21,256 bases of DNA from the NCBI GenBank assembly GCA_022385805.1, contig MU277725.1:6446-27701 (forward strand), read 5' to 3'. Shown here one piece after another: positions 442 to 21,256 of the stretch; position 1 is the first letter of the stretch, and each line of letters begins with the position of its first letter. This DNA is from Pilatotrama ljubarskyi (Eukaryota > Basidiomycota > Agaricomycetes > Polyporales > Polyporaceae). Position numbers and translations under genes: made by a program. The notes under the pieces are model-generated. The model did not search any database. It saw nothing but the letters and a program-made list of their open reading frames with translations, and had not been told where the DNA came from.

Positions 442-442
442 C

Positions 443-4348: not shown

Positions 4349-4610
4349 AAACTATTCTAAAACTGATTTTACTGCAAGGGGATGCCTTGGGGTCTCTCGG
4401 GCACGTCTGTCCACAGGACTGTCTGACGCGCGAAGTGGGGATGGGGACTAGACGAACAGATAGAAACTAGCTAGGGGACCGAGTATGTGGAGGTGTCCGG
4501 TAACTATGTACGTGTACCAGTCGGCGTGACTGATGAGGTAAACGCAGAGGCCGAAGCGGATCTCAGGTGGAACGGATTCAAACACGAGGGGCATTGGACC
4601 ATGCTACCCC
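4349..4610. other. Intergenic stretch downstream of the Helitron frame
   Basis: I see no convincing coding potential here. I looked for a Helitron 3' end (a short GC-rich hairpin about ten bases before CTRR) and found no clear one; the CTAG near 4469 has no convincing hairpin before it. The downstream boundary of the Helitron remnant is therefore unresolved. Confidence 0.5.
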
Positions 4611-4872
4611 CCGGAATAGGTGCGTGACCAGCCCAGGAACTGGACTCCTGTCACGGCGGTCACTCCCAGAATATTCCGTGCCGGAACAGGTCACAATGTT
4701 TCCACATTTCCCGGTCGCGTTCAGGTCCGGAATATGACTCCTAGTTTTGGTCCGGAATTCTCGCCGAGCCATGCCCGGACAATGAATCCTGTCACATCAC
4801 TATTCCGGTCCTGAACTGGGCAAAGAGCTTTGAAGCGTATTCACAGCCTGTCTCCCGTCCTGAACTATAACC
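4611..4872. repeat. Cluster of CCGGAATA / GTTCAGG-type inverted motifs
   Basis: A non-coding stretch with repeated short motifs in both orientations: CCGGAATA at about 4611, ATATTCCG next to GCCGGAACA near 4671-4688, GTTCAGGTCCGGAATA at about 4719-4734, GGTCCGGAATTC near 4748, TATTCCGGTCCTGAACT at about 4801-4817, and GTCCTGAACT near 4857. The copies at 4719 and 4801 are near-perfect inverted versions of one 16-base word. ACTCCTGTCAC-like words recur near 4645 and 4785. Such clusters are usual in subterminal regions of DNA transposons. Whether this belongs to the Helitron remnant, to the large element on the right, or to a separate small element cannot be decided here. Confidence 0.55.
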
Positions 4873-4894
4873 GGGACAGGTATCCTCCTCCGAG

Positions 4895-4967
4895 GCTCAA
4901 CGTTGAGCATACTACGAAAACAGTCGGGCTAGTTTGCATGTCACGCGTCTGTACTGGTACGCCCGAC
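4895..4967. other. 14-bp perfect palindrome and short hairpin, possible element boundary
   Basis: GCTCAACGTTGAGC (4895-4908) is a perfect 14-base palindrome. It is followed at once by ATACTACGAAAAC, which resembles the CACTACAAGAAA-type termini of plant CACTA elements without matching them exactly. A 7-bp stem (GTCGGGC at 4923-4929 with GCCCGAC at 4961-4967) follows. This is one candidate for the left end of the large element, but no matching right end is visible because that end is outside the window. Confidence 0.3.
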
Positions 4968-5035
4968 AGTCCAATTCGTTTCTCGATACATCGATGCATC
5001 GCGCTCAGCATCGTGTGGTCCAACTGTGAGCGCTT

Positions 5036-5296
5036 GAGCTCGCACGCGGCGCGCGCGTTGAATTCATGTACGAGCTCATACCTGGTATGCTCGACCCCCG
5101 CCGTTCGCAGCTCACGCGTGAGCTCGCGCGCGCAGTGACTTGTAAGAGCTCAAGAGCTCCGTGCCACTCGACGCGAGCTCTGTGCCACTCAACGGCAAGC
5201 TCCGAGCTCGCCGAGCTCATTGTCCGAGCTCCGCAGCTCACAAAGCTCAAACGCGCTTATGGAGCCCAGGCGAACTACGCGAGCTCGCAAGGTGGG
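5036..5296. repeat. Left subterminal AGCTC/GAGCTC motif array (outer part)
   Basis: About 14 copies of AGCTC occur in 260 bases, many inside the palindrome GAGCTC, and the density continues into the adjoining inverted-repeat arm with nine more. Spacing is irregular and flanking bases vary (GAGCTCATG, GAGCTCCG, AGCTCACA), so this is not a simple tandem array. Dense short motifs just inside the termini are the known binding sites of the element-encoded protein in CACTA elements such as En/Spm. By analogy I infer transposase or accessory-protein sites. No coding sequence is supported here. Confidence 0.7.
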
Positions 5297-5461
5297 CACG
5301 GAGGAGCTCCGGGTAGCTCACAGAGCTCATGAATGCGCTCGCTCGAGCACGGGCGAGCCCCGGAGCTCGTCCTAGAGCTCACGCCGTTCTGACTCGCCAG
5401 GCACGCAGGAGCTCCGTAGCTCACAGAGCTCATGCTGGAGCTCGTCCTATGGCCACGGAGT
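5297..5461. repeat. Left arm of the long inverted repeat
   Basis: This 165-base stretch is repeated in inverted orientation at 21088-21256. Aligning the two shows only a few substitutions, a 2-base gap near the outer edge and a 6-base gap next to GCCGTTCTGACTCGCC. The match stops sharply after CCTATGGCCACGGAGT on the inner side. Within the arm there is an internal duplication: the block around GGAGCTCC..TAGCTCACAGAGCTCATG occurs twice, about 105 bases apart. On the outer side the right arm is cut by the window edge, so the repeat may be longer. Confidence 0.85.
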
Positions 5462-5654
5462 CTTATGAGAGGTCACGACGCTCCAGGCGAACTCTCTGCG
5501 CCGCCCGTTGCGCTCAGCTCTACGAGCCACTCGCGCACCCCCCTACCCCTGGAATTCTTCTGAAATGGGCATGCCTCACTCCGACAAGGACGATTATGAA
5601 ATACAAGGTGCTTTATGTACAGTAATAGAGGATATATGATCATCGTATCGCTAC

Positions 5655-8600
5655 TCACCGTTGTGCTGCTGAAACCCTGGGAGCTGGCAAAGTGAACTTG
5701 TAATCCTCTTGGATGATGTTCAAAGACGCGCGTACGTGCGGCCGCAGCGATTTGAGCCACTCCTCGTCGTAACAATTCCTCCAGAGACCGACAGGCGCGA
5801 GGCTATCTTCGACGCGCGCGTCCTTGTGCTCAAGACGGATGCGTGGGGGGTTTCCAGACGTCGCTCGCTCGCCGACGGGCTTGGCCCAGCATTCTCGATA
5901 GAGCGCATCGAGCGTCCTCAAGAATAGCTTCAATGCCAAGCTCTGCCAGCGAGCCTCCACGATGCGGAACTTGGGCGGATGCGTCTTCTCAGCTCCGTCG
6001 GTCTCGTCACCACTCATATGGATAGGGCGGAGCAGACTGAACAGACGCTTGTGCTCTTTCAGCTTGAACTCCAGTATCACGAAGACGCGACTGTCACGGA
6101 GCTCGAAGGACGTCAGCAAGAAGTCCGCACATCAGAGTTACGCAGACCGACCGTAGCCCTCCGGGAGTTCATAGCCTTCCGCTTCTTGATCTTCGCCTGG
6201 TCAGCCTCGCTAAGCGGCTGGAAGTGTTGCTTGTAGCCCCTCCGACGGTACTCCATGTGGACGTCGAGAACTTGACCGACGATCTTCTCGTTGAGAAGCT
6301 TCTCAGGGATACTGAGGTCGGAGTAGGTTCCGCCCCTGTACATCTCGATGAGACTCCGGACGAAGACGTTCTTCGCAAGGCGATTGAATTCGTTGTCCTT
6401 CCAGGAGCGCTCGAAGTCGATCCGAAAGGATTGCACTGAGCATGTCAGCATATCGTCCTCGCCCTCCAGAAAACTGTTCATCTCCTCGTCGGTGATTGGA
6501 GGGTTTTTCTGGACCAGCTCTTCCATCGATCCGACATTGCATAGCGTGAACAAGTGCTTCCGAACACAGGCCTAGAGCCCAGTAAGTTATCGTGTCGGGT
6601 CAACTACGACCAGGAACACTCACCTGCAAGGCTGCTAACCCCTCTTTGAGCTGAGGGTCGCGAAGCATGGAGGCCTTCTTGGCTTTCCGTTTGCGAGATC
6701 GGGCAGTGAGCTCCTCTGGCTCTAGCTCATCGTCAGCCTCAGCTGCCGCCGTCGCTGGACCGCTAGCGGCGTCGCCATCATCGCCGTCGTTGACATCGTC
6801 GTTGTCACCTTCATTCTCGGATGTGCGTCGGCTGTCATTCGCGCGATTCACAAACTTCTGATGTGAAGTCTCGATGGCACCGAGCCGTCCCGAGAGTTCA
6901 GAGAACTGCTCAGTCAAAGTCGATCTGACGATTGATCAGTCTCGCGATCATTATGGGAGACTCATGTGCGTACCGTAGCTCCTGGTTTGAAGTGACCAAC
7001 TGCTGCATGAGGGTCGCCATTTGTTCCCCTTGTCGCAGCAGTAACGACATGAACTGTGCCGAGGGATCAGTCTAGAAATGACCGACACATTATCAGCGAC
7101 TGTCGAAATCCGAAGCACGCCACGTACCTTGATCGGCGAAGGAGACGTCATACGGTCGAAAGTCGGTGATGGTACACGATAATGAGGCTGCTCCGGGGGG
7201 GGAGAAGGCCGACTAGTGGGCTTCTGTGGTGTTGGCGACGAGACAACTTGCTCCAACGCTTCGAAGGAAGGGAGTAGCGAGCCCAGCTCGGATGAAGAAG
7301 AAGCTGCAGGTGAAGGAGGCGACAGTGGGGGCAGATCAGGTTGCATATCAGGGACAGCGGTGAACCGAGTGGACGACGGCAAAGGAGCGGGTAACTCCGC
7401 GGGACGTTTTGGCGAGAGAACGCGGAGTTGCGGAGAGACAGACAACTGTGAATGAGTGTGGCTAAGGCTTGGCAAAATCGAGGCCGGCTCGGGAGAGGAG
7501 CAGTGTGTAGGCGGAGTAGACGCAATGGGAGGAGATAGGGTACGAACAGGTGCATCGTGCGCGGGGGAGGGGAGAGAATCGCTCCACGGATTCCCTTCAG
7601 AGGAAGGCAGACGCTGCACGGAAGTCGGGTGGTAGAGCACAAGTGCTGCAGTAGCCGGAGTATGTGGCAGGGAATGATCAGCGGCGACAGGAGAATGGTC
7701 GCGTGCGGACCCGCCGGGAGTCGACGCCTCTGCTGTGTCTTCTAGCGCTTCTTCAAGGTGCTGCTCGATGAGGAGCTCATCCATCTGCTCCTCGAAGTGT
7801 TGCTGCTGCGGCAATTCCTGGTGGTCGGGCTCCGGGGGAGGGCGTTGCTCGTGCGCACCTTCGAACGAACCCTTGAGATGCTGGTAGACGAGTGACTGCT
7901 GAGGCGATTCCTTGTATGGAGCGTGTCGAATAGTCTCGCTGCGGCCTCCCTCTTGATCCATCGCAAGGACACGTCGATGCGCCTTCGCTTCACGAGAAGC
8001 CTCTCGATCCGACGTCTGCTCTAAATCTTGAAGAGCTTGCTCGCGCGTGCGTTCGCGCAGAGCCTTCTGGCGGGTTTCCTGTTCGAGGCGTGCCTCTTGC
8101 AGCTCCTCCTCACGACGGTGCAGCTCGGCCCTAAGAGCCTCCAGGCGCGTCTCCTCAGCGAGGAGCGCCTCCTGTCGCATCTTCTCAGCACGGAGCGACT
8201 GCTCGTATGCCGCCTGCTCATCTTGGAGAGTGCGCCAACGTGAGGCCTTCTGGGAAAGGGCCTTCTCGTACGCCGCGCGCTTCTGGATAGCCTCTCGGTG
8301 CGCTTCCTCTCGGAAGGCGACGGCCCGGAACGACGCAAGAGCGTGCTGCTGCACTTTCTCTACACGGGAGGTCTCGCGATACGGGGTCTTCTCGATCTCA
8401 CGGAGAGCCTGGCGGCGCGTCTCTTCGCGTCGTGCTTGACGGCGGTTCTCCTCAATTCGGAGGGCCTCGAGGCGTTCCTCTTCGGCTAATTTTGCTCGAC
8501 GATGACTTTCCTCTTCGTGAAGAGCCTTCCATCGAGGCGCGTACTCGTCCGAGATTTGTTGCAGAGTACTGCCCCAAAGGGCGGCTTGAGGCCTATGCGA

Positions 8601-8964
8601 GGTGGGACGGGTGTCTTGGGCCTGTTGGGAGAACTCCTCTTGGCGAACGCGTGCTTGGCGAGCGTCGAGAGTGACACTCTGCGCACAGACTGGGGATTGT
8701 GGCCGAACGGTGAAAGAAGGCTCGCGGCGAATAGCAGGGACCGGTCGAGGGTCAGGTGGCTGTGGGTTAACTCTGAAGGACGGCTGACGGCCAATGGGAT
8801 GATGACTCGGCGAGGACTTGGCGGGTTGGGAGCGCGAGCCTGGCCCTTCGATGATACGGGGCGTCGGGGCTGTGCGCACGCGAGCCTGTACACCTCATTG
8901 TGTTAGTAGTGATTGAGACTCGTCGCAACAGAAAACGCACGGTGTCTCTGGCATTTTCCGCCAT
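5655..8964 (-). CDS. Coiled-coil nuclear protein of an uncharacterised basidiomycete family
   Basis: Model: complement of 5655-6101, 6152-6571, 6624-6924, 6974-7071, 7128-8885, 8941-8964 (six exons, 1015 aa). Introns are 49-56 nt with GT..AG ends and phase-consistent joins; the first exon encodes only MAENARDT. Layout: a proline-rich N-terminus with two copies of an R-x-PSF-x-V-x-PQ motif; a long Arg/Glu-rich coiled coil at about 125-320; a Pro/Ser-rich linker to about 590; a glutamine-rich helix (SAQFMSLLLRQGEQ); an acidic Asp stretch; a basic RSRKRKAKK signal near 700 that suggests nuclear import; then a conserved C-terminal region with MSGDETDG, GNPPRIRL and CYDEEWLKSL. I recognise this C-terminal pattern as recurrent in basidiomycete proteins of unknown function. 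An accessory DNA-binding role for the element (TnpA-like) is possible but is inference. The stop lies inside a GTGAGT donor-like word, so a further 3' exon is possible. Confidence 0.8.
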
Positions 8965-9463
8965 ACTGGGGTTACTCTACGGTGCGGCAGTCGCCTGCGA
9001 TTGCTGCGAGAGATTCTACGAAGTGGCTTGCACGAGATGCACGCGTGTTGTTGCCCGAAGGAACGCTGTTCTTGCAAGCAATGAAACGGCCAGCCTGTGG
9101 CAGAAGAGCAGAAAGAAATGGCGCGTGTGGCGCGTGAAGCAGTTTGGGAGAGAAAAGAGGAGCACGCTTGGTATTCGCGGGGGTCGTTAAAGACGGACAG
9201 CGGAGCGGGCCGAGTGGCACGGGCGCTATTTCGCGGTACCGTGCCTATCACGCATAGCAGCGGCTTGGACCTCACCTGAGTCGAAGTACTTCAAGGCCCA
9301 CTCCAGATATAGAGTCCGAAGCCCGGACTGTCGGGTACAGGGACCATGTCACACGTTCTTAACAAATTCTACAAAGCCAGGGCCCGTATCAGCCGAAAAG
9401 CATCCTAGGGCAAAGTTAGGCGGTCAGAGAGTGTCATGCTGCGAGACTAAGCGGTACCTACCG
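8965..9463. other. Intergenic region upstream of the coiled-coil gene
   Basis: About 500 bases between the start of the coiled-coil gene and the stop of the SUN gene, which are transcribed in the same direction. Short open frames exist on both strands but none shows a recognisable domain or splice-consistent extension. I take it as the promoter of the coiled-coil gene plus the 3' end of the SUN gene; no specific element could be assigned. Confidence 0.5.
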
Positions 9464-10501
9464 TCATAGAGGATCGCCGTGGATCCGCACTCGGTACAAG
9501 CAGGTTGAGTTCCCGCCCCAATTACCCAGTATCTCCACCGCTAGAACTCCGAAGGACAGCTCACTATCGACGAACGGCCGGGATACAGGGAAGGTTTGGA
9601 TAGGGTTATCGGCGTGGATATCGTATACGAAAGACACCAGCTGCGCCCACTGCTGTTCCCGTGCAATAGTCGGAAAGCGTCTGTCGTAGTCGACGAGTCC
9701 CGCAGTCTTGAGAGATGCAAAGATGTCCTTGTTGCGAGTTCCTTCCAAGACGCCCCATAGTGTTATGTTCTTCGGCGCCCGCTCTATGTCAACTGCGATC
9801 TCACCAGGCAGATGCTCGACAGAGATGTGCGTGGGACGGAGGATGCGAGCAAGGCGTATGCCCAACTGAGAGGGTAAGGTGTTCATCGTCCAGCACTTGC
9901 CTGCGTGGACATCATCGTCGATGGCAATGCTTGGGTCGTCCTCCCTTGACGACAAGATGCTTCCTCGGGAGCCCGACGTGAGCTTCAGAGCAACACGACC
10001 ACCATGGGCGCGGAGAGCGTAATCGGGTCGCCCGCGACGGCCGGCTTGCTGCGCACGCATCGTCGATAAGACTACCTCTTCTATGGCCGCCTTCATAGCG
10101 GGGTTCAGGACATCTTTTGATCCGTTGACATCCATCGTCCAAGGCCAGCGCGACTTCAGGGCCAGTAGGGGAGAATTATGAGAGGATTGAGACTGCCGCA
10201 TTGTAGAGAAGGCGACGGCAAGGAGTAGAACAGCCAGGGCGGCAGGGAGGAAGACGGAGGCCCAGCTCCTGTTGCTCGCAGGCAAGACAGGCGATAGGTC
10301 TTGCTCATCCCTATCGGAGGAGATGGATGTGGTGGAGGCGAAGCGAGTGACCTTGCGCGAATCTAGGAGAACGTCGATGACCGGCTGAGTGAGAGTAGAA
10401 ATATACGTACAAGTAGGCTCTGCCGACCACGTCCTTGAATCTTCCCGGAGTGCGAATCTGCTCCCATCGAAGGGGGAGCCAGGATCCCTGACAGAGGACA
10501 T
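9464..10501 (-). CDS. SUN-domain single-pass membrane protein
   Basis: Model: complement of 9464-10362 and 10411-10501 (329 aa), one 48-nt intron with a GTACGT donor. SUN proteins sit in the inner nuclear membrane and bind KASH partners in the perinuclear space to link the nucleus to the cytoskeleton. Seen here: a 64-residue hydrophilic N-terminus that would face the nucleoplasm; one membrane segment at about 65-83 (FLPAALAVLLLAVAF); a linker with a short helical stretch near 120-135; and a C-terminal SUN domain at about 143-329. The domain opens with PDYALRAHGGRVAL, contains GKCWTM and LGIRLARILRPTHISVEH, and ends with ILGNWGGNSTCLYRVRIHG, the hallmark final strand of the fold. It is shorter than animal SUN proteins because the long coiled coil is absent. 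The start is the first ATG in the frame. It lies between the arms of the inverted repeat, so it appears to be transposon cargo or a captured host gene. Confidence 0.88.
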   Translation of the reverse strand: MSSVRDPGSPFDGSRFALREDSRTWSAEPTCTYISTLTQPVIDVLLDSRKVTRFASTTSISSDRDEQDLSPVLPASNRSWASVFLPAALAVLLLAVAFSTMRQSQSSHNSPLLALKSRWPWTMDVNGSKDVLNPAMKAAIEEVVLSTMRAQQAGRRGRPDYALRAHGGRVALKLTSGSRGSILSSREDDPSIAIDDDVHAGKCWTMNTLPSQLGIRLARILRPTHISVEHLPGEIAVDIERAPKNITLWGVLEGTRNKDIFASLKTAGLVDYDRRFPTIAREQQWAQLVSFVYDIHADNPIQTFPVSRPFVDSELSFGVLAVEILGNWGGNSTCLYRVRIHGDPL

Positions 10502-10560
10502 GTACGCGTGTGGCGACGAACGAAGAATTGTGAAGGTAGCAACAAGGAGTCTAGGGAGCT

Positions 10561-10578
10561 CAGCGCTCAAGCGCTCAG
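10561..10578. promoter_or_regulatory. AGCGCT motif pair upstream of the SUN gene
   Basis: CAGCGCTCAAGCGCTCAG lies about 60 bases upstream of the SUN gene start. A similar GAGCGCT pair lies upstream of the WD40 gene (13871-13892), and GAGCGCTTGAGCTC opens the left subterminal array near 5030. A shared site for an element-encoded regulator would explain this. The words are short and palindromic, so chance is not excluded. Confidence 0.3.
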
Positions 10579-10773
10579 TGGCGACGCGAGCTCTCGTGGG
10601 CGCTTAACCATGGGAGCGCCTAGGCGCAGCTTCAAGACCCGGGCGGCGGACCCCAAGTACGGCCCTCATGTCCAGGAATATTTCAGACTCCTCGCAGCAA
10701 GATGAGATCATAGAGTATATTGATTCGTAATAAGGTACATCCTGCACGTTCAGGTATCCTGCCCATATCCACG

Positions 10774-12025
10774 TCACATTCTCTCCAACGCTACTACGGA
10801 GGGAACTGTATACGATCGGTCTCCTGCAATGCAGAGCGTCAGGAAAAACAAGATCTCAGTAGTAGACAAGAGCCACCCACTAGAGGCCCGTCTAGATCCC
10901 CAGTCACCACCGACCCAGGACAAGGCTTGCTTCTTCGGCGTGATCGTCAGAATACGGCCGTCTGCGCGCTCATGCCCGAGCTCGATGGGCCGCCAGATCT
11001 CTTTGTCGTTGGTTCCCTCAACCACTCGTAGCCAGAACTGGTTACGTTCAGGGGTGCTGTGCCAGAAGACATCCCCTTGTCGTAGACCGCAAGTTGGAAG
11101 CAGAGGGGGAGGGCTTGCAATCTCATGCTGAGATTCGGTCTTGAACCACCAGGTATACTGCCGCCCGAGCAGGGCGTCGTGCTTGCCATTCCCTCGGATG
11201 GGATTCTTATGCCTGACCAGCTTGAGCTGACGTATTCATAGTGAGTGAGCTGTGACTATCCGAGCTTCCGTCGATGGTATGAGAGGACGCACCATGCCAG
11301 CCGCAGGAGCCTCAGGCGGGATGCTCACCGCATGACTACTCTCTGTCGGAGATATGGAGCTTCTTGAGTGAGACCTAGTAACACGCATAGTAGTCGCCGC
11401 CGTGGTCCTCGAAGCGGAACGTCGTGGATGTGGGGCACTTGAACGACTCATTTGAACGCCTCCGCTTCCACTTCTACGACCATCTCCACTTCCACCTGCA
11501 TCGCTCTCGCTCGTCGAATGCGCTTCATCCCAGGCAGTTGTCGTTGCACGCCGAGAGAGGAGCTCGGGGGGCGGAGAGGAAATGATAGAACTCAGCGACT
11601 GAGGCGTGGAAGCTTCATCGCTCCGAACGGGTGCGACTGATACTGAGCGCGTGAGAATACTCTTCGGCATGGGTCGTCCGTCTTCTTCTTTGATGCTGCT
11701 CGAGATGTGACTTCATCGGTACGATACGCATATAACAGAAGCAATCTATCACTTACCCTAATGATCTTGCAGGACCCATCGGGTTGATAGTCCGGAGAAC
11801 CATCGGGGCGGCGTTGCTACCGGGCGGCACACGAGCAGAAAACTGAAGCACTGTGGGCGGACGGGCGCGCACAACAGTGGAAGCAGAGAACGCATAGTTC
11901 GCCTCCGCTGGGTGTGGTGCTTTCGATAGGCAAAGCGAGAATATGAGGTAGAGAAATAAGAGAGCTGACAGGGCAATGCAGACGGACGGCAGGTACTCTG
12001 CCAGTGGCGCGTTGAGGACGTCCAT
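10774..12025 (-). CDS. Single-pass membrane protein, unknown function
   Basis: Model: complement of 10774-11226, 11293-11695, 11757-12025 (374 aa) with introns of 66 and 61 nt (GTGCGT and GTAAGT donors). Joins restore smooth sequence, for example GIKEEDGRPMPKSIL across the first junction. An N-terminal membrane segment lies at about 12-34 (PSVCIALSALLFLYLIFSLC). It is followed by FSASTVVRARPPTVLQF, a long Ser/Arg-rich low-complexity region, and a C-terminal globular part with VRHKNPIRGN, GRQYTWWFKTE, GLRQGDVFWH and RVVEGTNDKEIWRPIELG. I know similar architectures from other basidiomycetes but no assigned function. A second hydrophobic stretch near the end (TEILFFLTLCIAG) may be membrane-linked or may lie past a missed intron. 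It sits between the SUN and WD40 genes on the same strand, about 270 bases from the SUN start. Confidence 0.78.
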
Positions 12026-12192
12026 GATCGAGGTAAGAGGGAGACAGTCGCGTCGGCATCAATGCATACTAGTAGTAGCCTGTCTCGTGGCCAGCTAATG
12101 GCCGGCAGCTCGGTGCCCCATCACCTGTTATATCGTAACAAAGCACGGCGCCGTGACGCCACAGCATGGTCGACATGACCAACTCCGCTCGA

Positions 12193-13776
12193 TTACAAGG
12201 GGTATTCTGTAGAGGGGAATGGAAGATAGCCGAGCACAGATCGTCCAACTGCAGACCACCCCATTGCCACAGCCAGCACCAGCACCAGCGGAATACAAGC
12301 CAGCACCAGCAAAATACAAGCCCGCACTGCCCGCCAAGACAAAAACGCTTGTGCCGAGGAAGCCGTCAGCGCTCTGGACGAGGATGAGACACGCGGTCTA
12401 CCTATAGACGATCAACGTAAGCAGCGAGAGTGCGGGGAGCTATACCGGCAACCTACGAGTCTCTCTCGTTCTCCAGAGGATAGTAGAAGAGGGAGCACGG
12501 CGGTTGAAAAGGCCCGTAGCAACGAGGAACGTGTCCCGCTGCTCATCATAATGTGCCTATATTGGATATTAGAACCGCACAGCTGATCATCGCTGCACGT
12601 CGCAATAGGTGCTTACTGAGATGGCAAGGACGGACACCTCGCCTAAGGTACAGGCCGTATCATGAGCAACTCGTCAGCAACGGCAATGGTGGGAGAGAGA
12701 TACCGTCAAGGGTAAGTGACTGTTTCCTCCGCGAATACACATCCCAGATATTGACCTTCCCATTCGAGGTCCCACCCAAGAGGGCATGGTCGCCGTGCAG
12801 GAAACGTACAGGGACTGGCGGACCGTTACTTACATCCTGCTGAAATGAGAAAAGCGGCTCGAGTTCGACGAAGCCCTTGATTGCGAACAACTCGAAGCCG
12901 GTGAGCATGTTCGAGACGGCCAGTATGCGCCCGTCTTTCGTCAGACTCGCATCCGCGCTGGGCAGTATCTCAGTATGGATCGTAGCGAGTGATCCCTCGA
13001 CTGCTCACATGTGACCGGGCAAGGAAGTACCCCCTATACGAGACCAGGTATGCCCTTCGAACGCCCTGCGAAGAGGCTACATCAGTCTCGAAATGACTTG
13101 CTACGGCCACGAAACCTACGCAACACCGTGGCTCAAATACGTGACCAGCAAAACGAGCGGATAGGACATGCTCGCAGTCCAGTGCAAGCTGGACACGATG
13201 ATCTCACATGCGGTAGTATATGAACTTCGTCGAGGAGCACGAAGGTCTGCGGCAAGTTTCCAAGAACCTGCGGGGAGATCTGAATTGGGGAGGAGACGAG
13301 CGATGATGAAGTGTCATAGACTTACCAGCGGCCGTACGCTTCCAAACCTTGACCTCCTTGTGCGCGCCCGAGGCCAGGTATGTGCCATTGAAGGCGAGAC
13401 GTTCCACGGGGAATCTATGCGCCAGGAATCCCTCCAGTTGTATGAGTTTCTGCAGAACCCGAGCCGTGAGCTGTTACGGGAAACGGCGTAGGGATATGCA
13501 GCATACCGTGGAAATTGCTAACGTTGCGATGGTGCCGTCCTCCATCCCGCACACCAAACCCTCATCCGATCCCAGCCACGCGAACGAGAGGACGGGTGAC
13601 TTCCCCAAGAACACATAGAGTAGCTTACCAGAAACGACGTCCCACAGGCAGGCACGCCCATCCAGTCCTCCAGTAGCCAGTAACTGTCCGTGTCGACTGA
13701 AGGCGACCGTTGTGACGGCATCAGAGTGGGCTTCCGGGTGCACTAAGCGCAGATACTGCTGATATTCCAGTGGCAT
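12193..13776 (-). CDS. WD40-repeat protein with C-terminal membrane segment
   Basis: Model: complement of 12193-12401, 12457-12556, 12617-12642, 12704-12957, 13009-13065, 13120-13267, 13326-13449, 13507-13776 (eight exons, 395 aa). Seven introns of 51-61 nt all keep phase, and one exon is only 26 nt. WD40 blades are visible: TTVAFSRHGQLLATGGLDG with CLWDVVSGK (about 23-50), VERLAFNGTYLASGAHK with VKVWKR, SSLHWTASMS, ASLTKDGRILAVSNMLTGFE, ALLGGTSNGKVNIWDV, and TFLVATGLFNRRAPS with ILWR. The last exon adds a basic-serine linker and a membrane segment at about 352-376 (ACILLVLACIPLVLVLAVAM), leaving a roughly 19-residue tail. WD40 propellers are scaffolds; here the scaffold would be held on the cytoplasmic or nucleoplasmic face of a membrane. 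Start chosen at MPLEYQQYL. The partner is unknown. Confidence 0.83.
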
Positions 13777-14340
13777 CGATAGGGTGATAACAGGGAAACA
13801 GGGAGCAAAGAGTAGCACTGCAGAAGTGAGCCCTGTTCCGAGTCATGGATCATAGGTGGAGCGAACAAGGGCGCTGAGCGCTCGTGAGCGCTCCGGTTGC
13901 TGGGTGGTGGAGGCGCCCGGCGTAGCGGACCGATTCTGATTAATCAAAGTCGCGATGTCCCCTCTCGGGACCACGTCTGGGTAACTTCAAGCCTGAAAGC
14001 TGAGTACTCAGGCCTTGTCGAAGGCGTTGTTTCCGACCTTGTCTCCCTGGTACCTGATACCTTGTAATCACAGCACCTACCCAGAAACAATGCCTGTCTG
14101 ATGTTCACAGCTCGCGCACGAGCTCGAGGTTGATGGCGTGCCATAACGCTTACTCCGAGTCCTCCTCGAAACTCCAAGTCCAAGCTGAGGCGCAGACGAA
14201 CTCACTGCAAGCTGGCCTGCGCCACTGGATGTACCGTATAAATTCGGACGCATGGAGGCGCAACAACGGCACTCGAACACCCTCAGGCTCACGCTCTTGC
14301 GAGCTACCAGCTTATCCTCTGAGCACGCCCTCCAAGTACG
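13777..14340. promoter_or_regulatory. Divergent intergenic region between the two gene blocks
   Basis: The minus-strand block and the plus-strand block diverge here, so this about 560-base gap should hold both promoters. It contains a GCGCTGAGCGCTC / GTGAGCGCTC motif pair at 13871-13892, resembling the sequence upstream of the SUN gene, and AGCTCGCGCACGAGCTC at about 14109-14125, resembling the subterminal motif. A further exon of the F-box-like gene could also lie in the right part, but I could not find a phase-consistent one. Confidence 0.45.
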
Positions 14341-15483
14341 ATGCCTATCCCGTCTACTCCGACTCGCAGCCGACAACATGCGCGGCTCACCATGGTCAGA
14401 AATTCGGACAAATGCTCATTCATGTTGACTACTACTAACCTTCAAATCACCGCAGAGTGCGCATGCTGCCCCAATTCGGCGCGACATCAATCTGACGTCT
14501 TGCCGTGCACTGGAGGATTTCATATCCCTCGGTCACTATAACGGGAACATTGGCCGAGTTGTCGAAGACCTGAGGATCGCACTGCCCTTGAACCAAGGAT
14601 ACCCGGCACAAGCAGTCCGCAATGTGCTGCGGCTTACTCCCAACATCGAATGCTTGGTTCTCGACCTCCCTTCTGACTCCCCTGTGACCCTGCTCAACGG
14701 CTTGAACTTTCCGAATCTCCGTGTCTTCTTCACCAATCTTCCCCATCGTGTCCTGGTCTCCTTCCTAACCGCTCACTCTTCTCTCACCTCCTTGGCGCTT
14801 CGTGCGTGCGGACGCAGCGTCATATGCCCCCTCAATGGCCTCGAGCTCCACCATCTCGTGGACTTGCAATGCCCTTCCCGGTGCTTCGTCGGGATCGCAC
14901 GCGGTCCTTTGGCTACTGCAACCGTTAACCTCACCCGTCTCACCTCCATGGCAAATCTTGCGATACAAACCCTCGTCGCATCGCGCATACACACCCTCAC
15001 TGTCGACTGCTTTCCCTCCGACTACGACATACTCTCCCGCGTGGTCAATGCGGTCCCCAACCTGCGTAAGCTCAAGATCAACGAGAAATTTCAACCCCAG
15101 GTACGTGTTGCAGTAAGCAAGAGATCACTGTGTTGATCAACCTGCAGCGTCGACGCAATCATGCCCGCCGACCTTGGAATGACCTGCGCGGATGGCATCA
15201 GACCTTGATGCGGTTGAGGTCGCTCGAGGAATTGATGTTGCGCACTCTCGTCCCAGTATCCGGTCCGAGTCGGTCTGAAGCGCGTGTTGTCAACGGGTGG
15301 GCTCGAGGCGTCGGCCAGCATGCCGTTGTCCACCCCAGTCTCTTCTACATCGCCCTCATTCAGAAGGACAGCGCCCCCGGCTCTACCGGACAGCTGCTCA
15401 GCCACTGGTTCAAAGACCATATGGGTGTCTGGGGACGCGTTTCTGGTGCCGTTATCGGCCCTACCCATTCGTTTACTCTTTAA
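14341..15483 (+). CDS. F-box/LRR-like protein, N-terminus uncertain
   Basis: Model: 14341-14394, 14456-15100, 15148-15483 (344 aa). The introns are 61 nt (strong CTAAC branch point and CGCAG acceptor, weak GTCAGA donor) and 47 nt (GTACGT donor). The main exons read continuously through NLTSCRALEDFISL, ALPLNQGYPAQAVRNVLRL, TNLPHRVLVSFLTAHSS, DLQCPSRCFVGIARG, LRKLKINEK and RRPWNDLRGWHQTLMRL, with regularly spaced leucines typical of the LRR-like part of basidiomycete F-box proteins. F-box proteins select substrates for SCF ubiquitin ligases. The F-box itself, expected just before the NLTSCRALEDF block, is not visible. Either an upstream exon is missed or the copy is truncated. The assignment rests on general sequence character, so the family name is less certain than the existence of the gene. 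Confidence 0.62.
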
Positions 15484-15819
15484 CTCCTATGTACTCCGTC
15501 AATTCTCAGGTTGCCATGAAGTATTATGTGTTCTATGCCGTATGATTTGCTACTCTTATGCCATATATACAACTCATGTTCGGATATCGACTCCACGTAT
15601 ATGCACATTCTGTAGCTTGGACCTTCGCTGCCGATCGGCTGTTTCCGAGATAGCGTGCTCTCAAGCTCAGACTCGTACACGCGCTGTGCCACTGCTGCGC
15701 GCCTAGACCTCCTTTCTCCTTGGCCACCTAACTGCTTCCAGCACAATGTACCCTTCGATGAGCTCCTACACTGATCCCTCTCTCACCGTCTGCCTTCACT
15801 CTCGACGTGCTCACTCCTG
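15484..15819. other. Intergenic region with TATA-like word
   Basis: Between the F-box-like gene and the next plus-strand gene. TATATA at 15564-15569 is a plausible core promoter word for the following gene. A short frame starting with ATG at 15746 (MYPSMSSYTDPSLT) can be joined in phase to 15856 through a 68-nt GT..GAG intron. If real, it would replace the first 12 codons of the next gene's model. Confidence 0.4.
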
Positions 15820-16654
15820 ATGTCCCGCTCTTCCAAATGCCTTGCATGGTCTGAGCCTCCAACTCGGATTGCAACTCCCGATATCGCCGCATCTCCGTTC
15901 GAAGTCAAGGACGCAGGACGTGCCACAGTGGCTACTGGGATAGGGATGTCGAGTGTGTTTGAGGTACGCGTGCCGCCATCGCGGCATTCTGCTGTAGTGT
16001 GCAAGCCTGATACTCGGCTGAAGGACCCCTCGCTCGTTCTCAAGGACCACCTGGAAGCGCTTCGTTCCAAGGTCGTCACCTTACAGCTCGAGGTCACAAT
16101 CCTGAAGGCCCAGAGAGCTACGGATCGCAGCAAGATCGAACAGTATGAGCGTGAACTTGTCGGCCTTCGCGCCAATACACAAGAGCTCTGCCTACACCTT
16201 CGGCGAATGAGTCGGATTCTCGACGACCTTGAGGCGAGTCGGAAGGGTATGAACGAACTATCGGGCCATTGCGTGGCCCGACCTCCAGGTATGTTGTGAT
16301 GTCCACATCTACCGTTATTCTTTGCAGAGCACCAATGGCGAACAGTGGCGCGTGTCGGTACTCCTCAATTGCTCGTGACAATCATGCGCGGCCAGCTACA
16401 AGCTTCTGTGAGTAAGGAGTTGGTATGATACGACACGTTGTGCGGTTGACATATGATAACAGCGTACAGGATGGAACGCGTTCGTCTCGCTCTCAATGGC
16501 CGGTGTCACCTGCCTGCTGCACTATCGTGTGATCTCGCACGCCAGCGCGTGTGGGTGGCTCGCTTTTGGGTTGTGTTGTCTTTTGGGCCTCCTCGTGAAG
16601 CCACCTGGTGATCCCGCTGACGAGTACCCCTTCTGGGCGGCGCTCGATGTGTAG
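15820..16654 (+). CDS. Coiled-coil protein with C-terminal membrane hairpin, unknown function
   Basis: Model: 15820-16288, 16328-16407, 16463-16654 (246 aa), introns of 39 nt (GTATGT) and 55 nt (GTGAGT), all in phase. The middle (about 70-145) is a heptad-like coiled coil (SLVLKDHLEALRSKVVTLQ, KIEQYERELVGLRANTQEL). Then come WRTVARVGTPQLLVTIMRG, two hydrophobic stretches (AFVSLSMAGVTCLLHY and GWLAFGLCCLLGLLV), and a short tail VKPPGDPADEYPFWAALDV. Such a layout suits a membrane-anchored tether. Because a SUN gene is nearby I considered a KASH-like partner, but the tail does not end in the usual PPPX, so this is only a hypothesis. The 39-nt intron is unusually short, and the start is uncertain because of the alternative first exon at 15746. 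Confidence 0.68.
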
Positions 16655-16673
16655 CTCCACGTTCAATGCATGG

Positions 16674-16729
16674 CTACCTTGTTTGACGTCCGTGGCATGC
16701 CCGCCCTTGTTCTACCTTGTTTGATGTCC
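16674..16729. repeat. 18-bp direct repeat upstream of the transposase gene
   Basis: CTACCTTGTTTGACGTCC (16674-16691) recurs as CTACCTTGTTTGATGTCC (16712-16729), one mismatch, 38 bases apart. It lies between the end of the coiled-coil membrane gene and the transposase start at 16813. It could be a regulatory site pair or a local duplication. Confidence 0.6.
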
Positions 16730-16812
16730 ATCATGTATACAGCGCTGCCAGCCCTTCTTCCCCTCCTCAACACCCCCTCCACAACACAACACTCTGCTTC
16801 ACCAGTGGCTCG

Positions 16813-19800
16813 ATGGGCGCAAAGAAGAAGCTTAGGCTCTGCCTGTGCTCGATATGCAGACACATCACGCGGGAGAAGGATGGAACCGTCGAAGCAGGTC
16901 GCATGGTCGACCTGAGGAAGTGGAAGGAGCACCAGGCCGACGATGCCTTGCGTGCGGAGGAAGCCGACCACCTCTTTTACACCGCAGTAGCTGCCGCTCT
17001 CGCAGACGGTCGCGATGTGGACGGCCTTCCGACGCGCCTCCGCAACACCGCATTCCAGAACGCAACGCAGGACGCAACGCAGGACGCAACGCAGGACGCA
17101 ACGCAGGAGCACGACAATCAGCTGTCAGCAGCGTCGGCATGTCTCTCCCTGCAACCCCTGCTCGTGTGATGTACTAATCGCATGTCCTAGGACGCGCCCA
17201 CTACTCAAGGTGCCGATCATCTCCCCCCTTCCTCGCCCTTCGACCAAACGCCACTGCCACCCGACACCAGTCCCCCTTCCCCGGCATCCGACACGTCTTA
17301 TGATGCAAAGGACCAGGTATATGATCTCCTCGTCCTGTCGCCTACATCTGCTGAGGGCACATTGCCAGGTCGACGAAGTCCAACGACGAATGGAGGAACT
17401 TGCACTCCTTGAATCCCTCATTTGCCATGAACTGCGTTTAGCTCCCAAGACTCCGCAACTCGTGTTCGACTCACCACCCTCCTCTATCGACGACGCACCG
17501 CCTGCTCTATGCGCTTCTCACAAGGGTTCGGACAACCAGGAGTTCCTCGCGCTTCGGCACTCGCTGGAGAGTAAGCAACATACTCTGCGCTTGCTTCCCC
17601 CCCTTGGCCATAAAGACGCAGATCGACGACGCGGAAAGCTGCTAGAGCGCGTTCGGGACGCACTTAACGGGTTGGATTCCCAGAGAAACATCGCCTGGGA
17701 ACGTCGGAAGCTGCTGACCGGCCTGTATGGATTCCCTCACGAGTCGGAGACGCGTACGCCGAGGGTGCATTACACCGGTGCGGTTGACTTCTTCACTCTG
17801 CACGTTCACTGCTGACTCCCAAGTAGATCATCTATTCATGTCTCGTCGTACAATGCAGCCGTGCATCTTGCTCACACTGCTCATCGTCAGTGCCCTCCAT
17901 GCGCTCTCCGGGCTGAACAGTGACGCTGCAAATCTCATCCTCGGTGTCATCCGGGTCGTCCTTACGGGTGCCTTCATCGCCTCGAACAATGCCGCCTCCC
18001 CTCCCACGTCGCCTCAAGTCTTGCCTCTCCAGATGAAGTCGCGGACCAGACGTCGTGAGACGACGCAGCTGCAGAGTCTCACGGAAGAGCAGCGATCCAT
18101 GGTCGGCTCGGTACCTCGTGATATACGGACGGTCCTCTCTCGCCTTGACCTCGAGCCGGATTTCATCCGTTACGCAACCTGTCCAAAGTGCTCACAGACA
18201 TACGCGCCAGACCTTGATTCACCTGATCGACCCTACCCCCCAAGCTGCACCTTCAAAGAAACGGACAAACCCATCTGTGGCTCAATCCTGACTCGCAAAG
18301 TCGTCCATGCCACGACAACGGGGTCACGGCCAGGTCATGTCACTCATGTTCCGCTTCGACCGTATCCGTATATGGCTCTCATATCCTGGATCGCGAACCT
18401 ACTCTCCCGGCAGACCGCCGAGACCATCGTTCAGGACGCTTGGACCAGCACGGCCCCCTCACCCGGGAAACCCTATACCGACATCCTACAGTCACCAGCT
18501 CTCCGGAACTTCCGTGCACCAGACGGTTCCTTCTATTGTGTTCAGCCCGACGATGTGATACATCTCGTTTTCGGTCTCTTCGTCGACTGGTTCAATCCCG
18601 GCGGGAACAAGAAAGCGGGGAAGTCGAAATCGATCGGGGCCATATACCTTGTGTGTCTCAACTTGCCGCCTGAGGTACGGTTCCTTCCGGAGTACATCTG
18701 CCTGCTCGGCATCATTCCCGGACCCAACGAACCATCCCTCCATGAAATGAATCACTTCCTGCGTCCCCTCGTTGACGAGCTCCTCGTCCTGTGGCATTAC
18801 GGCGTCCGCTTAAGCCGAACAGCGCTTCACCCGAATGGTCGTCTGGTCCGCGCAGTGGTTATTCCTCTCATCTGCGATCTTCCAGCGCTTCGCAAGACGG
18901 CGGGCTTCGCGGGTCACGGGTCACGCCATTTCTGTTCGTTCTGTCTGCTCAAGAAGCCGGATATCAACAATCTCTCTCGCCCGTGGCCCTCACGCACATG
19001 GCAGGAACATCTAGACATCGCAACTCGTTGGCGAGAAGCGAAGACCGAAGCCGAGCGGGACGCTATCTTCGATGAGCACGGCCTGCGTTGGTCCGAACTC
19101 CTCCGCCTACCGTACTGGGACCCCACACGATTTGCAGTGGTCGACGCCATGCACAATCTATTCCTCGGAGCACTACGCCATCACTGCCGCGACGTCTGGG
19201 GAATCAAGGACGTCAAAGAGAAGACTACGACTAAGGCGACTGCACACACGCCTGCTGAGCAAGGCGAGTGGCTGGAGCACCTGGTAGCCACCCTGCGGCA
19301 AGTTGTCCTCCCCGACAGCACTCTGGCCAAGGGCGCAATGTCGGCAGTTACACGACCGAGAAAAGGATACCTGGTCGCACTCGCCCAGGCCAATGGTATA
19401 CTGCCTGACTCGTGTTCAACCAAGCAAGCCTATGGCGCCGCGCTGCTTGAATGGGTCAGTCACCGCATCGATCTTTGGTCGCATGGAGATGGCGTTGACG
19501 ACAGTAATACAGGCACGGTCTCATTCTGTTGATAGCCTGGTCATACCCCCAGTCCTGCCGAAGCCGACGGCCGACTTCCATCTGGCCAAGAATGCTCACG
19601 ACGTCTCTAAGTTCCGCGTCCTCACTGCTGAACTCATCGAGGCTCTGCGGTCTGATATGTCAACGACATATCTCCCATCGTGGATAGAACGTCCGCCGGC
19701 AAATTTCGGTAGCGCTGCGCATGGGAAGCTGAAAGCGGATCACTGGCGGACGATCTGTTCCATAAGCATGGTCATCACCCTCGTACGGGTCTGGTCTTCG

Positions 19801-20963
19801 TCCACTGCAACTGTCGGAGACCGGAAGGTGCTCGAGAACTTCGTCCATCTCGTTGTTGCTGTCGACTTGGCTTCCCGACGCTCCATGGACTCCGAGCGCG
19901 CTCGCCTGTTCGATTATCATATGACCCAGTACCTGACCACGCTTCGGGAGCTCTTCGACCACGACTTGGTCCCCAATCACCACCTCTCACTCCACCTCAC
20001 TGCATGCCTCCTCTTGTTTGGTCCCGTACGTGGGTGGTGGGGCTTCCCTTTTGAGCGATACAACGGTATCATTCAACGTCTCAACTCAAACAATCACATC
20101 GGTACGTGCGCCTCATTCTCTGCACGAGTCGTACTGCTGACCACGGAACAGCCGAGATCCCCCTGACATTCATGCGCCTATTCTATACCGGTGCGGAGCT
20201 GCGCTGGCTGATCTCTTCGACGAACTGGCCAGACTCGGCGGAGTTCCAAGAGGTTTTGGCATCGTTCCGCAAGACCTATCAGGACGCAGCACATGGATCA
20301 CGCGTACACGACACCTTCAACTCAATTCCTCCCGCTGCTGGCAGTGCTGGCCGACCGCTCGACGACGTATACGCGGGGCTCAGTGCCAGCGAGGTTCGCC
20401 TGCGCGACGATCAGTATCTTGCTCTCGTCAATCTCCTGCATGCCGTCTACGGTCACCATGCGTACACAACCTACAACAGTGATCTCGCCGATGCTCGCTT
20501 GCGCGTCTCGCCGCATGTCCGTCCTCTCACGAAGCTCGAGATAGGTCGTGTCACGTACGGCACTCGTGCGAACCATATCCGAAACTCTTTCGTGTGTTTC
20601 CAAGACCCTGCCTCAGACCACCCGACTCTTGTGCGCGCTGGTCAGATTTCGCAAATCTTCCTCCACTCTCGGGCTGCGTCAGGGACTCGCAATCTCGTTC
20701 AGTCATTCTTGGTCATTGATGAATATGTGCCCTTGACTCAGGCCCACTGCGACCTCGACCCCTATCGTCGCTTCCCCCTCCTCAACACACAACTTCATTA
20801 CAATCACTTCTACCCTCGCCCCACCGTGATTCGTACCGAAGACCTACTATCGCACTTTGCAGCGTATTTCTACGTACCCGAGGGCATCGATCAGGGTTGC
20901 GTTGTGGTGCGCTCATTGGACCGTGTACGTCCTCGCACGTTCCAGATTTATCGGATGAGCTGA
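16813..20963 (+). CDS. Tnp2-type (CACTA/EnSpm superfamily) transposase
   Basis: Model: 16813 to about 17136, then 17191-17316, 17369-17753, 17827-19454, 19513-20101, 20152-20963 (about 1290 aa). Introns are 50-73 nt and the last five exons join in phase. The N-terminus has CLCSICRHITREKDG with GRMVDLRKW and later H and DD, a small metal-binding-like element usual in fungal Tnp2 proteins. Next is a disordered D/P/S-rich linker, a helical region, and CPKC..YPPSC..CG near 396-430. The core has VDWFNPGGNK (D about 532), CLNLPPEVRFLPEYICLLGIIPGPNEP, CDLPALRKTAGF (D about 629) and FCSFCLLKKPD. The C-terminal part (HHLSLHLTACLLLFGPVRGWWGFPFERYNG) matches the region that follows the core in these transposases. 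I take the two aspartates as members of the DDE-type site. The first intron is unclear: phase fits a GC donor at 17137 (54 nt) or an implausible 27-nt GT intron at 17164. An in-frame optional intron may start at 17571. No stop interrupts the model, so it may be active. Confidence 0.9.
17059..17106. repeat. 12-bp tandem repeat in transposase exon 1, four units
   Basis: Four units of (A/G)ACGCAACGCAG run in frame and encode DATQ repeats (the first unit reads NATQ). The units are essentially identical, which suggests recent slippage. The repeat lies just before the uncertain first intron, in a linker where length change should be tolerated. Confidence 0.9.
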
Positions 20964-21087
20964 CATGCCTACAGAGCTAGTTGTAAGCCAATGTGAACTA
21001 TATGCTGAACATCAGACCTTCTCGACAACCTCGTACGCACTCTAGTCGATCTCACCAACAAAATTGCGCCAGCGAAGCTGTCATGAT

Positions 21088-21256
21088 ACTCCGTGGCCAT
21101 AGGACGAGCTCCAGCATGAGCTCTGTGAGCTATGGAGCTCCTGCGTGCCTGGCGAGTCAGAACGGCAACAGCGTGAGCTCTAGGACGAGCTCCGGGGCTC
21201 GCCCGTGCTCGAGCGAGCTCCAGCATGAGCTCTGTGAGCTACGGAGCTCCTGCGTG
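21088..21256. repeat. Right arm of the long inverted repeat (cut by window edge)
   Basis: Reverse-complement copy of 5297-5461, starting sharply at ACTCCGTGGCCATAGG, about 125 bases after the transposase stop codon. It holds about ten GAGCT motifs and the same internal duplication as the left arm. Compared with the left arm it has a 6-base insertion (TGTTGC as read on the minus strand) and a few substitutions. The repeat is still matching at the last base of the window, so it extends beyond it. The 120 bases between the transposase stop and this arm contain no gene. Confidence 0.85.

What the first reader, a model, noticed from the sequence alone, without database searches (positions are those of the whole stretch)
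5297..21256. About 16-kb segment bounded by matching inverted AGCTC-rich arms and containing a Tnp2 transposase plus six other genes
The arms at 5297-5461 and 21088-21256 are inverted copies with few differences, both ending sharply on the inner side, and the transposase stops just before the right arm. This fits one giant CACTA-like DNA transposon carrying cargo. Large cargo-bearing elements are well documented in ascomycetes (Starships, which use a different recombinase), but I know of no described basidiomycete Tnp2 element with this gene set.
Basis: partly seen in the sequence, partly recalled or inferred. Interest (0 to 1): 0.92.

Follow-up and report, generated by a model that had tools for sequence, protein, structure and literature searches.

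The report
Giant fungal transposon carrying nuclear-envelope gene
This stretch of a wood-decay fungus genome is one copy of a family of very large jumping DNA elements that carry, besides their own jumping enzyme, a set of other genes including one for a nuclear-membrane (SUN-domain) protein.

Summary
The host is very probably Pilatotrama ljubarskyi (from matching contig lengths). The window copy (E1) starts further left than reported, at window 4583, with CACGAGGGGCATTGG; its right end lies in an assembly gap. A second copy (E2, contig C109, 18,713 bp) is colinear from arm to arm at synonymous divergence 0.65-0.99; its arms are 99.9% identical, and it sits inside another repeat whose uninterrupted copies show the empty site. 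A more distant relative on contig C1 (31,255 bp) has 1.9-kb arms, CAC..GTG ends and a 3-bp target duplication. Of 27 short elements examined with the E1/E2 terminus, 26 have 3-bp duplications. This is an EnSpm/CACTA-type element.

All seven genes (coiled-coil A, SUN, membrane protein C, WD40, LRR-like E, coiled-coil F, Tnp2) show dN/dS of 0.10-0.38 between E1 and E2, so the cargo looks selected rather than captured junk. A, SUN and Tnp2 relatives recur together in this genome and, pairwise, in Trametes; A and Tnp2 in Ganoderma. Eight searches of open-licence papers listed no transposon with a SUN gene. What SUN does is inferred: probably anchoring at the nuclear envelope. New variant of a known kind.

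The parts
4583..5471 (+). Left terminal arm of element E1; outer end CACGAGGGGCATTGGACCATGCTACC, inner part with GAGCTC repeats (17 copies from 5036 to 5438)
5658..8894 (-). Gene A: about 1,000-aa protein, disordered and coiled-coil N-terminal part, conserved C-terminal domain; five exons modelled, first exon uncertain
   Evidence: dN/dS 0.15 (C-terminal), 0.38 (N-terminal); a Trametes meyenii relative is modelled as helical at its C-terminal domain
9464..10603 (-). SUN-domain (Sad1/UNC-84) protein, one predicted transmembrane helix (residues 117-135 of the ORF), SUN domain at the C-terminus
   Evidence: Pfam PF07738 E 2.2e-17; SUN2 chains of the PDB E 2.5e-15; hydropathy; dN/dS 0.18
10774..12058 (-). 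Gene C: protein with one N-terminal hydrophobic helix and a conserved C-terminal domain without Pfam match
   Evidence: dN/dS 0.135
12443..13842 (-). WD40-repeat protein gene, several exons
   Evidence: PF00400 E 1.6e-13 in the frame 13474-13842; conserved pieces in E2 and C162; dN/dS 0.15
14429..15483 (+). Gene E: possibly LRR-like (F-box/LRR type) protein; intron 15101-15147
   Evidence: weak fold matches to COI1, Skp2 and FBXL proteins on a poor model of the E2 version; dN/dS 0.115
15775..16651 (+). Gene F: small coiled-coil protein upstream of the transposase; by eye, a similar coiled coil starts one Ganoderma sinense Tnp2 gene model (P0021)
16687..20963 (+). Tnp2 (Transposase_21) DDE-type transposase gene, several exons; N-terminal exon(s) within 16687-17815, core 17718-19532, then frames 19288-20166 and 20055-20963 joined by introns (one near 19455-19518)
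   Evidence: PF02992 E 1.6e-16, 60.6 bits against cut-off 28.6; alignment; intron; dN/dS 0.10-0.18
21078..21256 (-). Inner part of the right terminal arm, cut by the gap that follows the window

Best explanation
The segment is one copy (E1; at least 16.7 kb, about 17.4 kb if the right arm equals the left) of a giant EnSpm/CACTA-type DNA transposon of Polyporales fungi. Its own Tnp2 DDE transposase recognises the CACGAGGGGC ends and probably the GAGCTC repeats in the arms, and moves the whole unit by cut-and-paste, making 3-bp target duplications. The element permanently carries six further genes. One encodes an inner-nuclear-membrane type SUN protein; the others encode a coiled-coil protein, a second membrane protein, a WD40 protein, an LRR-like protein and a small coiled coil. 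Shown: the unit, its boundaries (E1 right end excepted), the insertion of its second copy elsewhere in the genome, the duplication in relatives, and purifying selection on every gene between the two copies. Inferred: the transposase's action, and that the cargo serves the element itself, most likely by tethering element DNA or transposition complexes to the nuclear envelope or cytoskeleton through SUN.
For: Colinear second copy with its own arms on C109; the same terminus at E1 left and both E2 ends, identical over the first 15 bp; E2 inserted 28 bp from the end of a 2.1-kb repeat whose own 7-bp duplication (CTGCTGC) is intact outside, and the four uninterrupted copies of that end that I fetched give the empty site; C1 relative of 31,255 bp with arms 99.5% identical over about 1.93 kb and TGA/TGA at the one offset, of 13 tried, that also gives CAC..GTG ends; 26 of 27 short 267-bp elements with the same terminus have 3-bp duplications; dS 0.65-0.99 and dN/dS 0.10-0.38 in all nine gene segments between E1 and E2; SUN within 25 kb of a strong Tnp2 locus at 6 of 14 loci (0.3 expected) and within 5 kb of A at 9 of 14 (0.06 expected); linkage in other species from shared contig lengths or neighbouring gene tags.
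Against: E1's right end could not be read, so its target duplication is untested. E2's left junction also falls in a gap. The C1 relative is only about 56% identical in Tnp2 and 37% in SUN and has a different gene set (two A-like, two C-like matches, no E match), so its duplication supports the family, not E1 directly. One SUN/Tnp2 pair (C6) is convergent rather than divergent and may be two elements. 8 of 14 SUN loci have no strong Tnp2 within 25 kb. The C104 SUN match is weak (31%, E 2.9e-10) and is not among the Pfam SUN hits. GAGCTC is absent from the C1 arm, and the E2 body is also mildly enriched (22 against 9.9, maximum 16). One E1 Tnp2 intron has a changed donor (GTCAGT) and a shifted acceptor, so E1 may or may not still make a full transposase. 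No expression, localisation or transposition data exist here.
Confidence: 0.94

Rival explanations
1. An ordinary CACTA element that captured a host segment once, by chance; the cargo is passenger DNA (as in gene-capturing plant elements; recalled).
For: DNA transposons capture genes elsewhere (recalled); SUN and WD40 are host-type domains.
Against: All six cargo genes show purifying selection at dS 0.65-0.99; A, SUN and C relatives recur with Tnp2 in divergent units of the same genome, and A, SUN and Tnp2 relatives share contigs pairwise in other species.
Confidence: 0.03
2. Two haplotypes or a segmental duplication of a host gene cluster flanked by inverted repeats, with a Tnp2 gene nearby by accident.
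For: Two colinear copies in one assembly at 67-83% nucleotide identity.
Against: The fetched flanks of C56 and C109 share no match outside the unit; both units begin at the same CAC terminus; E2 sits inside a repeat with the repeat's own duplication intact; 3-bp duplications in relatives.
Confidence: 0.02
3. The element is real, but the SUN protein works on the host rather than for transposition: as a transposon-made LINC component it changes nuclear migration, pairing or meiotic chromosome movement so that the element's nucleus or chromosome is favoured in a dikaryon (a drive).
For: SUN proteins act in nuclear positioning and meiotic telomere movement (established knowledge, recalled); SUN is retained in nine A-linked loci of this genome.
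Against: Nothing here tests nuclear behaviour or transmission; a simple anchoring role explains the same data.
Confidence: 0.15
4. A giant element mobilised not by Tnp2 but by another recombinase, as Starships are by a tyrosine recombinase.
For: Size and cargo resemble Starships (listings).
Against: Inverted arms, CAC..GTG ends and 3-bp duplications fit Tnp2; Pfam scans of 18 distinct ORFs (20 queries, one of them the Helitron) found no tyrosine recombinase.
Confidence: 0.02

Closest known systems
EnSpm/CACTA DNA transposons (Tnp2, Transposase_21)
   Same: Transposase family, CAC..GTG ends, 3-bp target duplication, subterminal repeat motif, short non-autonomous relatives
   Different: Size of about 17-31 kb, arms of 0.9-1.9 kb (99.5-99.9% identical to each other in E2 and C1, 90.6% over the visible part of E1), and six conserved extra genes including SUN. 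CACTA elements usually have short terminal repeats and one or two genes (recalled).
TET/JBP-carrying EnSpm and Plavaka families of fungi (Kojima 2025, PMC12730594; abstract, introduction, section 3.2.2 and search passages seen)
   Same: CACTA-clade fungal elements that carry an extra protein; EnSpm families with CAC..GTG and 3-bp duplications
   Different: The extra gene there is a TET/JBP dioxygenase; no TET/JBP hit appears in the ORFs scanned here. 'SUN' gave two word-start hits in the paper that I did not open and 'WD40' none; 'SUN domain' none.
Large EnSpm families of the red alga Chondrus crispus, 16-20 kb with 4-5 ORFs (one passage in PMC6431247)
   Same: Enlarged EnSpm with several ORFs
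   Different: Only one sentence was seen; the gene content was not compared.
Starship elements of ascomycetes (abstract starts in listings)
   Same: Giant cargo-carrying fungal transposons
   Different: Starships use a tyrosine recombinase captain; that they lack long inverted arms is recalled. Here a DDE-type transposase and inverted arms.
Foldback/Galileo-type elements with long inverted repeats (abstract start of PMC3573991 in a listing)
   Same: Long, internally repetitive inverted arms
   Different: Galileo's transposase is of the P-element group; here Tnp2

Membership tests
EnSpm/CACTA | Tnp2 / Transposase_21 transposase | tested here: met
   PF02992 60.6 bits against cut-off 28.6; of the E2 protein D364, C383, C386 and H456 are invariant and D267 and H466 nearly invariant in 14 aligned sequences. 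Reading these as the catalytic and C(2)C/H motifs is recalled, helped by the description.
EnSpm/CACTA | CAC..GTG termini | tested here: met
   E1 left end and both E2 ends; both C1 ends. E1 right end is in a gap.
EnSpm/CACTA | 3-bp target-site duplication | tested here: met
   C1 relative TGA/TGA; 26 of 27 short elements with the E1/E2 terminus. E1: not readable. E2: right flank TAG matches the uninterrupted repeat, left junction in a gap.
EnSpm/CACTA | Subterminal repeats of a short motif | tested here: met
   GAGCTC 17 in the E1 left arm and 16 in an E2 arm against 0.65 and 0.86 in shuffles; 0 in the C1 arm, where no 7-mer rose above the shuffles' maximum. Binding by the transposase was not tested.
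Plavaka | Termini TGT..ACA or CATCA..TGATG | tested here: not met
   Ends are CACGAG / CACGGC; definition from PMC12730594
Starship | Tyrosine recombinase captain gene | tested here: not met
   No such Pfam hit among the 18 distinct ORFs scanned; not every small ORF was scanned
TET/JBP-carrying transposons | TET/JBP dioxygenase gene | tested here: not met
   No such Pfam hit among the 18 distinct ORFs scanned
SUN-domain (Sad1/UNC-84) proteins | C-terminal SUN domain after a transmembrane helix | tested here: met
   PF07738 63.8 bits; match to PDB SUN2 chains over two stretches; hydrophobic helix 117-135 (the same simple scan also flags two stretches in Tnp2 and one at the start of a WD40 frame, so the helix is a prediction)
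LINC complex component | Inner-nuclear-membrane location and binding of a KASH partner | not testable with these tools
   Needs localisation and binding experiments

The most novel reading that the evidence does not exclude
A lineage of giant CACTA transposons in Polyporales has taken over part of the nuclear-envelope bridge: its own SUN protein, a second membrane protein and coiled-coil/WD40 partners form an element-made anchor that holds element DNA at the nuclear envelope, either to bring the distant ends of a 17-31 kb element together for transposition or to bias its inheritance through nuclear movement in the dikaryon.
Probability: 0.35. Interest if true: 0.93.

Novelty: new variant of a known kind. 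Interest (0 to 1): 0.8.

Why it matters
Giant cargo-carrying transposons in fungi are known mainly from ascomycetes (Starships). This shows a basidiomycete counterpart built on a different, DDE-type transposase, with a conserved and selected gene set. A transposon that permanently carries a SUN gene raises a direct, testable question: why would a mobile element need its own nuclear-envelope protein? It also warns that about ten of the 14 Pfam SUN-domain places in this genome are probably transposon genes, not host genes, and that some annotated Trametes SUN proteins may be transposon-borne too.

Tried and rejected
Empty site for E1: the left flank carries a Helitron (window 368-4348), but similarity to its 99% relative on C14 stops at window 4283, 300 bp before E1, so the Helitron does not give E1's empty site. 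The first 1.7 kb after the gap were read; no arm sequence lies in C56:29807-40000, so where E1 ends cannot be told.

Frameshifts in E1 (my first reading of the Tnp2 and gene E frames): rejected. Both places fit introns, although the Tnp2 intron of E1 has a changed donor and acceptor.

28-bp inverted flank of E2 as part of E2's own end: rejected; it is the end of a separate repeat of about 2.1 kb.

C90 ends: only inner arm pieces of 75 bp (93%) and 17 bp match; no outer end or duplication found. IMG/VR scan with SUN: one weak locus, 32% over residues 213-277, not followed. Gene A structure: modelled on the Trametes meyenii relative P0139, mean pLDDT 51, C-terminal helical part mostly 75-95, no PDB match at E below 2. 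Gene E: poor model of the E2 version (mean pLDDT 50, three sequences), best PDB hit COI1 at E 2.3e-3, several LRR F-box proteins below it among unrelated folds. Tnp2 against PDB sequences: nothing convincing (best E 0.67). The SUN tree has 10 of 18 inner branches open; I take from it only the close pairs C1/C18 (starred) and C90/C173 (80/99, not starred).

Literature: eight searches listed no paper describing a transposon with a SUN gene. Two lists were capped (25 of 1,811; 12 of 28), and only open-licence PMC papers are held. The C1, C90 and C104 units were not read in full.
Full report
WHAT IS IN THE SEQUENCE. The two arms exist and are inverted copies (90.6% over 181 columns). The window is C56:6446-27701 of a 33-Mb, 173-contig assembly and is bounded on both sides by N stretches. 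Proteins named Pilatotrama ljubarskyi lie on contigs of 73,259, 211,690 and 87,447 bases, the lengths of C109, C56 and C98 here, so the host is very probably that polypore. The left arm reaches outward to window 4583, where CACGAGGGGCATTGG starts abruptly. The right arm is cut at the window end by the N stretch.

A SECOND FULL COPY. Contig C109 holds the same unit in opposite orientation at 44563-63275 (18,713 bp). Nucleotide matches of 67-83% run colinearly from arm to arm, its own arms are 99.9% identical over 964 bp, and no match extends into the flanks that were fetched (C56 up to 40000, C109 25001-73259). The left arms of E1 and E2 align at 657 of 808 positions. E1's left end and both E2 ends are the only perfect matches in the genome to the terminal pattern (3 of 35 sites at up to 3 mismatches; reversed-pattern control 0).

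INSERTION AND EMPTY SITE. E2 lies within another repeat, X, of about 2.1 kb. X's terminal 28 bp stand directly right of E2, and X's other end stands 2.1 kb left of it, with an N stretch between. In C109, X is flanked outside by CTGCTGC on both sides, and in C30 by GGTGGCG on both sides: a 7-bp duplication. The right ends of four uninterrupted X copies (C30, C37, C55, C68; these four were fetched, of 17 sites of the 28-mer at up to 3 mismatches) read CACTAAC-TAGGAGCC; in C109 E2 ends exactly before TAGGAGCC. So E2 moved into X. The left junction itself is not readable.

ENDS AND DUPLICATION IN RELATIVES. A relative on C1 holds Tnp2, SUN, two A-like and two C-like matches between inverted arms that match at 99.5% over about 1.93 kb. 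At one offset of 13 tried the flanks agree (TGA on both sides), and that offset is the one that gives CACGGCAGG ends: a unit of 31,255 bp, C1:779063-810317. Of the 35 pattern sites, 3 are E1/E2 ends; of the other 32, letters were obtained for 27. Of these 27, 26 are 267-bp elements with inverted ends and a perfect 3-bp duplication, and one is truncated; 5 were not examined. Of the 27, 22 (counting the reference copy itself and the truncated one) are 97-100% identical to the reference copy and five are 85-97%, so the terminus was active recently. CAC..GTG with 3 bp is what Kojima (PMC12730594, passage) gives for fungal EnSpm; Plavaka ends differ.

THE GENES. On the minus strand from the centre to the left: WD40, C, SUN, A. 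On the plus strand to the right: E, F, Tnp2. SUN matches PF07738 and SUN2 chains of the PDB. A simple hydropathy scan predicts one membrane helix each in SUN and C, in both copies; it also flags stretches in Tnp2 and at the start of a WD40 frame, so these are predictions only. A is a roughly 1,000-residue coiled-coil protein with a conserved C-terminal domain, helical in a model of its Trametes meyenii relative. E looks LRR-like, on a weak model. Between E1 and E2, dS is 0.65-0.99 in all nine segments measured and dN/dS is 0.10 (Tnp2 core), 0.18 (Tnp2 C-terminal), 0.115 (E), 0.135 (C), 0.146 (A C-terminal), 0.151 (WD40), 0.179 (SUN), 0.33 (F) and 0.38 (A N-terminal). The similar dS says that the genes diverged as one unit; the low ratios say that each has been useful.

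HOW OFTEN THE SET RECURS. In this genome 14 SUN loci, the 14 strongest of 40 Tnp2 matches and 14 A loci were compared: SUN within 25 kb of Tnp2 at 6 of 14 (0.3 expected), SUN within 5 kb of A at 9 of 14 (0.06 expected), A within 25 kb of Tnp2 at 8 of 14 (0.3 expected). Some Tnp2 loci may be duplicates of one another (C28 and C125 score alike, C157 holds a mirrored pair). Contig C162 holds SUN-C-WD40-E-F-start of Tnp2 in the same order, its first 6.4 kb being N; C104 has SUN-like, C, E and Tnp2 matches in order, but its SUN match is weak and absent from the Pfam search. That Pfam search finds SUN domains at 14 places; C72, C73 and two on C21 have no A and no strong Tnp2 neighbour within those limits and are probably host genes, although weak Tnp2 pieces lie 7 kb from one C21 gene. 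Elsewhere, equal contig lengths or neighbouring gene tags link SUN and Tnp2 (contigs of 16,031 and 26,429 bases; Trametes cingulata, 677,686), SUN and A (T. meyenii, T. pubescens, T. versicolor with adjacent tags 6929/6930, T. sanguinea in one gene model), and A and Tnp2 (T. pubescens TRAPUB_8056/8050; Ganoderma sinense GSI_12586/12594). By eye, the T. pubescens SUN model P0004 begins with a piece like the WD40 gene. Linkage from equal contig length is an inference and weak on long contigs; a T. cubensis protein is listed with the same 18,626 length as the T. pubescens pair, and two other G. sinense A/Tnp2 pairs share a contig but are far apart by tag. The protein searches scored only the candidates sharing most words, and one search lists 120 of 619 hits.

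ARMS. GAGCTC is about 26-fold (E1) and 19-fold (E2) over shuffles in the arms, and absent from the C1 arm; the E1 body is not enriched beyond the shuffles, the E2 body mildly so (22 against 9.9, maximum 16). This is what one expects of family-specific subterminal binding sites of CACTA elements, but binding was not tested.

MECHANISM. Shown: a bounded, mobile unit of CACTA type with selected cargo. Inferred from established knowledge of Tnp2: binding of ends and arms, excision, insertion with a 3-bp stagger. Inferred with less certainty: SUN inserts into the inner nuclear membrane, and A, C, F and WD40 are partners that connect it to the element or to the cytoskeleton. I put anchoring that helps transposition or inheritance at about 0.35 in total.

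AGAINST. E1's own right end and duplication are unread; E2's left junction is unread; the C1 unit is a distant relative with a different gene set; 8 of 14 SUN loci lack a strong Tnp2 neighbour; one pair (C6) is in convergent orientation; E1's Tnp2 has one altered intron.

LITERATURE. Eight searches listed no report of a SUN gene in a transposon; the one paper holding 'SUN domain', 'DNA transposon' and 'fungi' is an essay on the origin of the nucleus (listing only). The library holds open-licence PMC papers only, and two lists were capped.

Noticed in passing
368-4348: Helitron-type protein with a PIF1 helicase domain (the Helitron label is recalled); similarity to a 99% identical copy on C14 stops at window 4283, so this copy seems cut or interrupted 300 bp before E1.
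   Followed up: partly
L019-L045 (27 sites): Family of 267-bp elements sharing the E1/E2 terminus, 26 of 27 with perfect 3-bp duplications, 22 of 27 at 97-100% identity to the reference copy: recently active non-autonomous elements.
   Followed up: yes
C30:25320-27438, C37, C55, C68, C109: Repeat X of about 2.1 kb with inverted ends and a 7-bp duplication (seen at C30 and C109); E2 is inserted in one copy.
   Followed up: partly
C157:63-1319 and 21588-22844: A 22.9-kb contig with mirror-image Tnp2 pieces at both ends (positions exactly symmetrical): a palindromic element or an assembly artefact.
   Followed up: no
C29:326513 and C108:64132: Further near-copies (3 mismatches) of the C1-type terminus, each without a partner in the pattern search.
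   Followed up: no
17049-17108: 12-bp tandem repeat (CGCAACGCAGGA) inside the N-terminal part of the Tnp2 gene.
   Followed up: no
C1:807761-808216: A-like match next to the right arm of the C1 element has three stops in the read frame: introns or decay.
   Followed up: no
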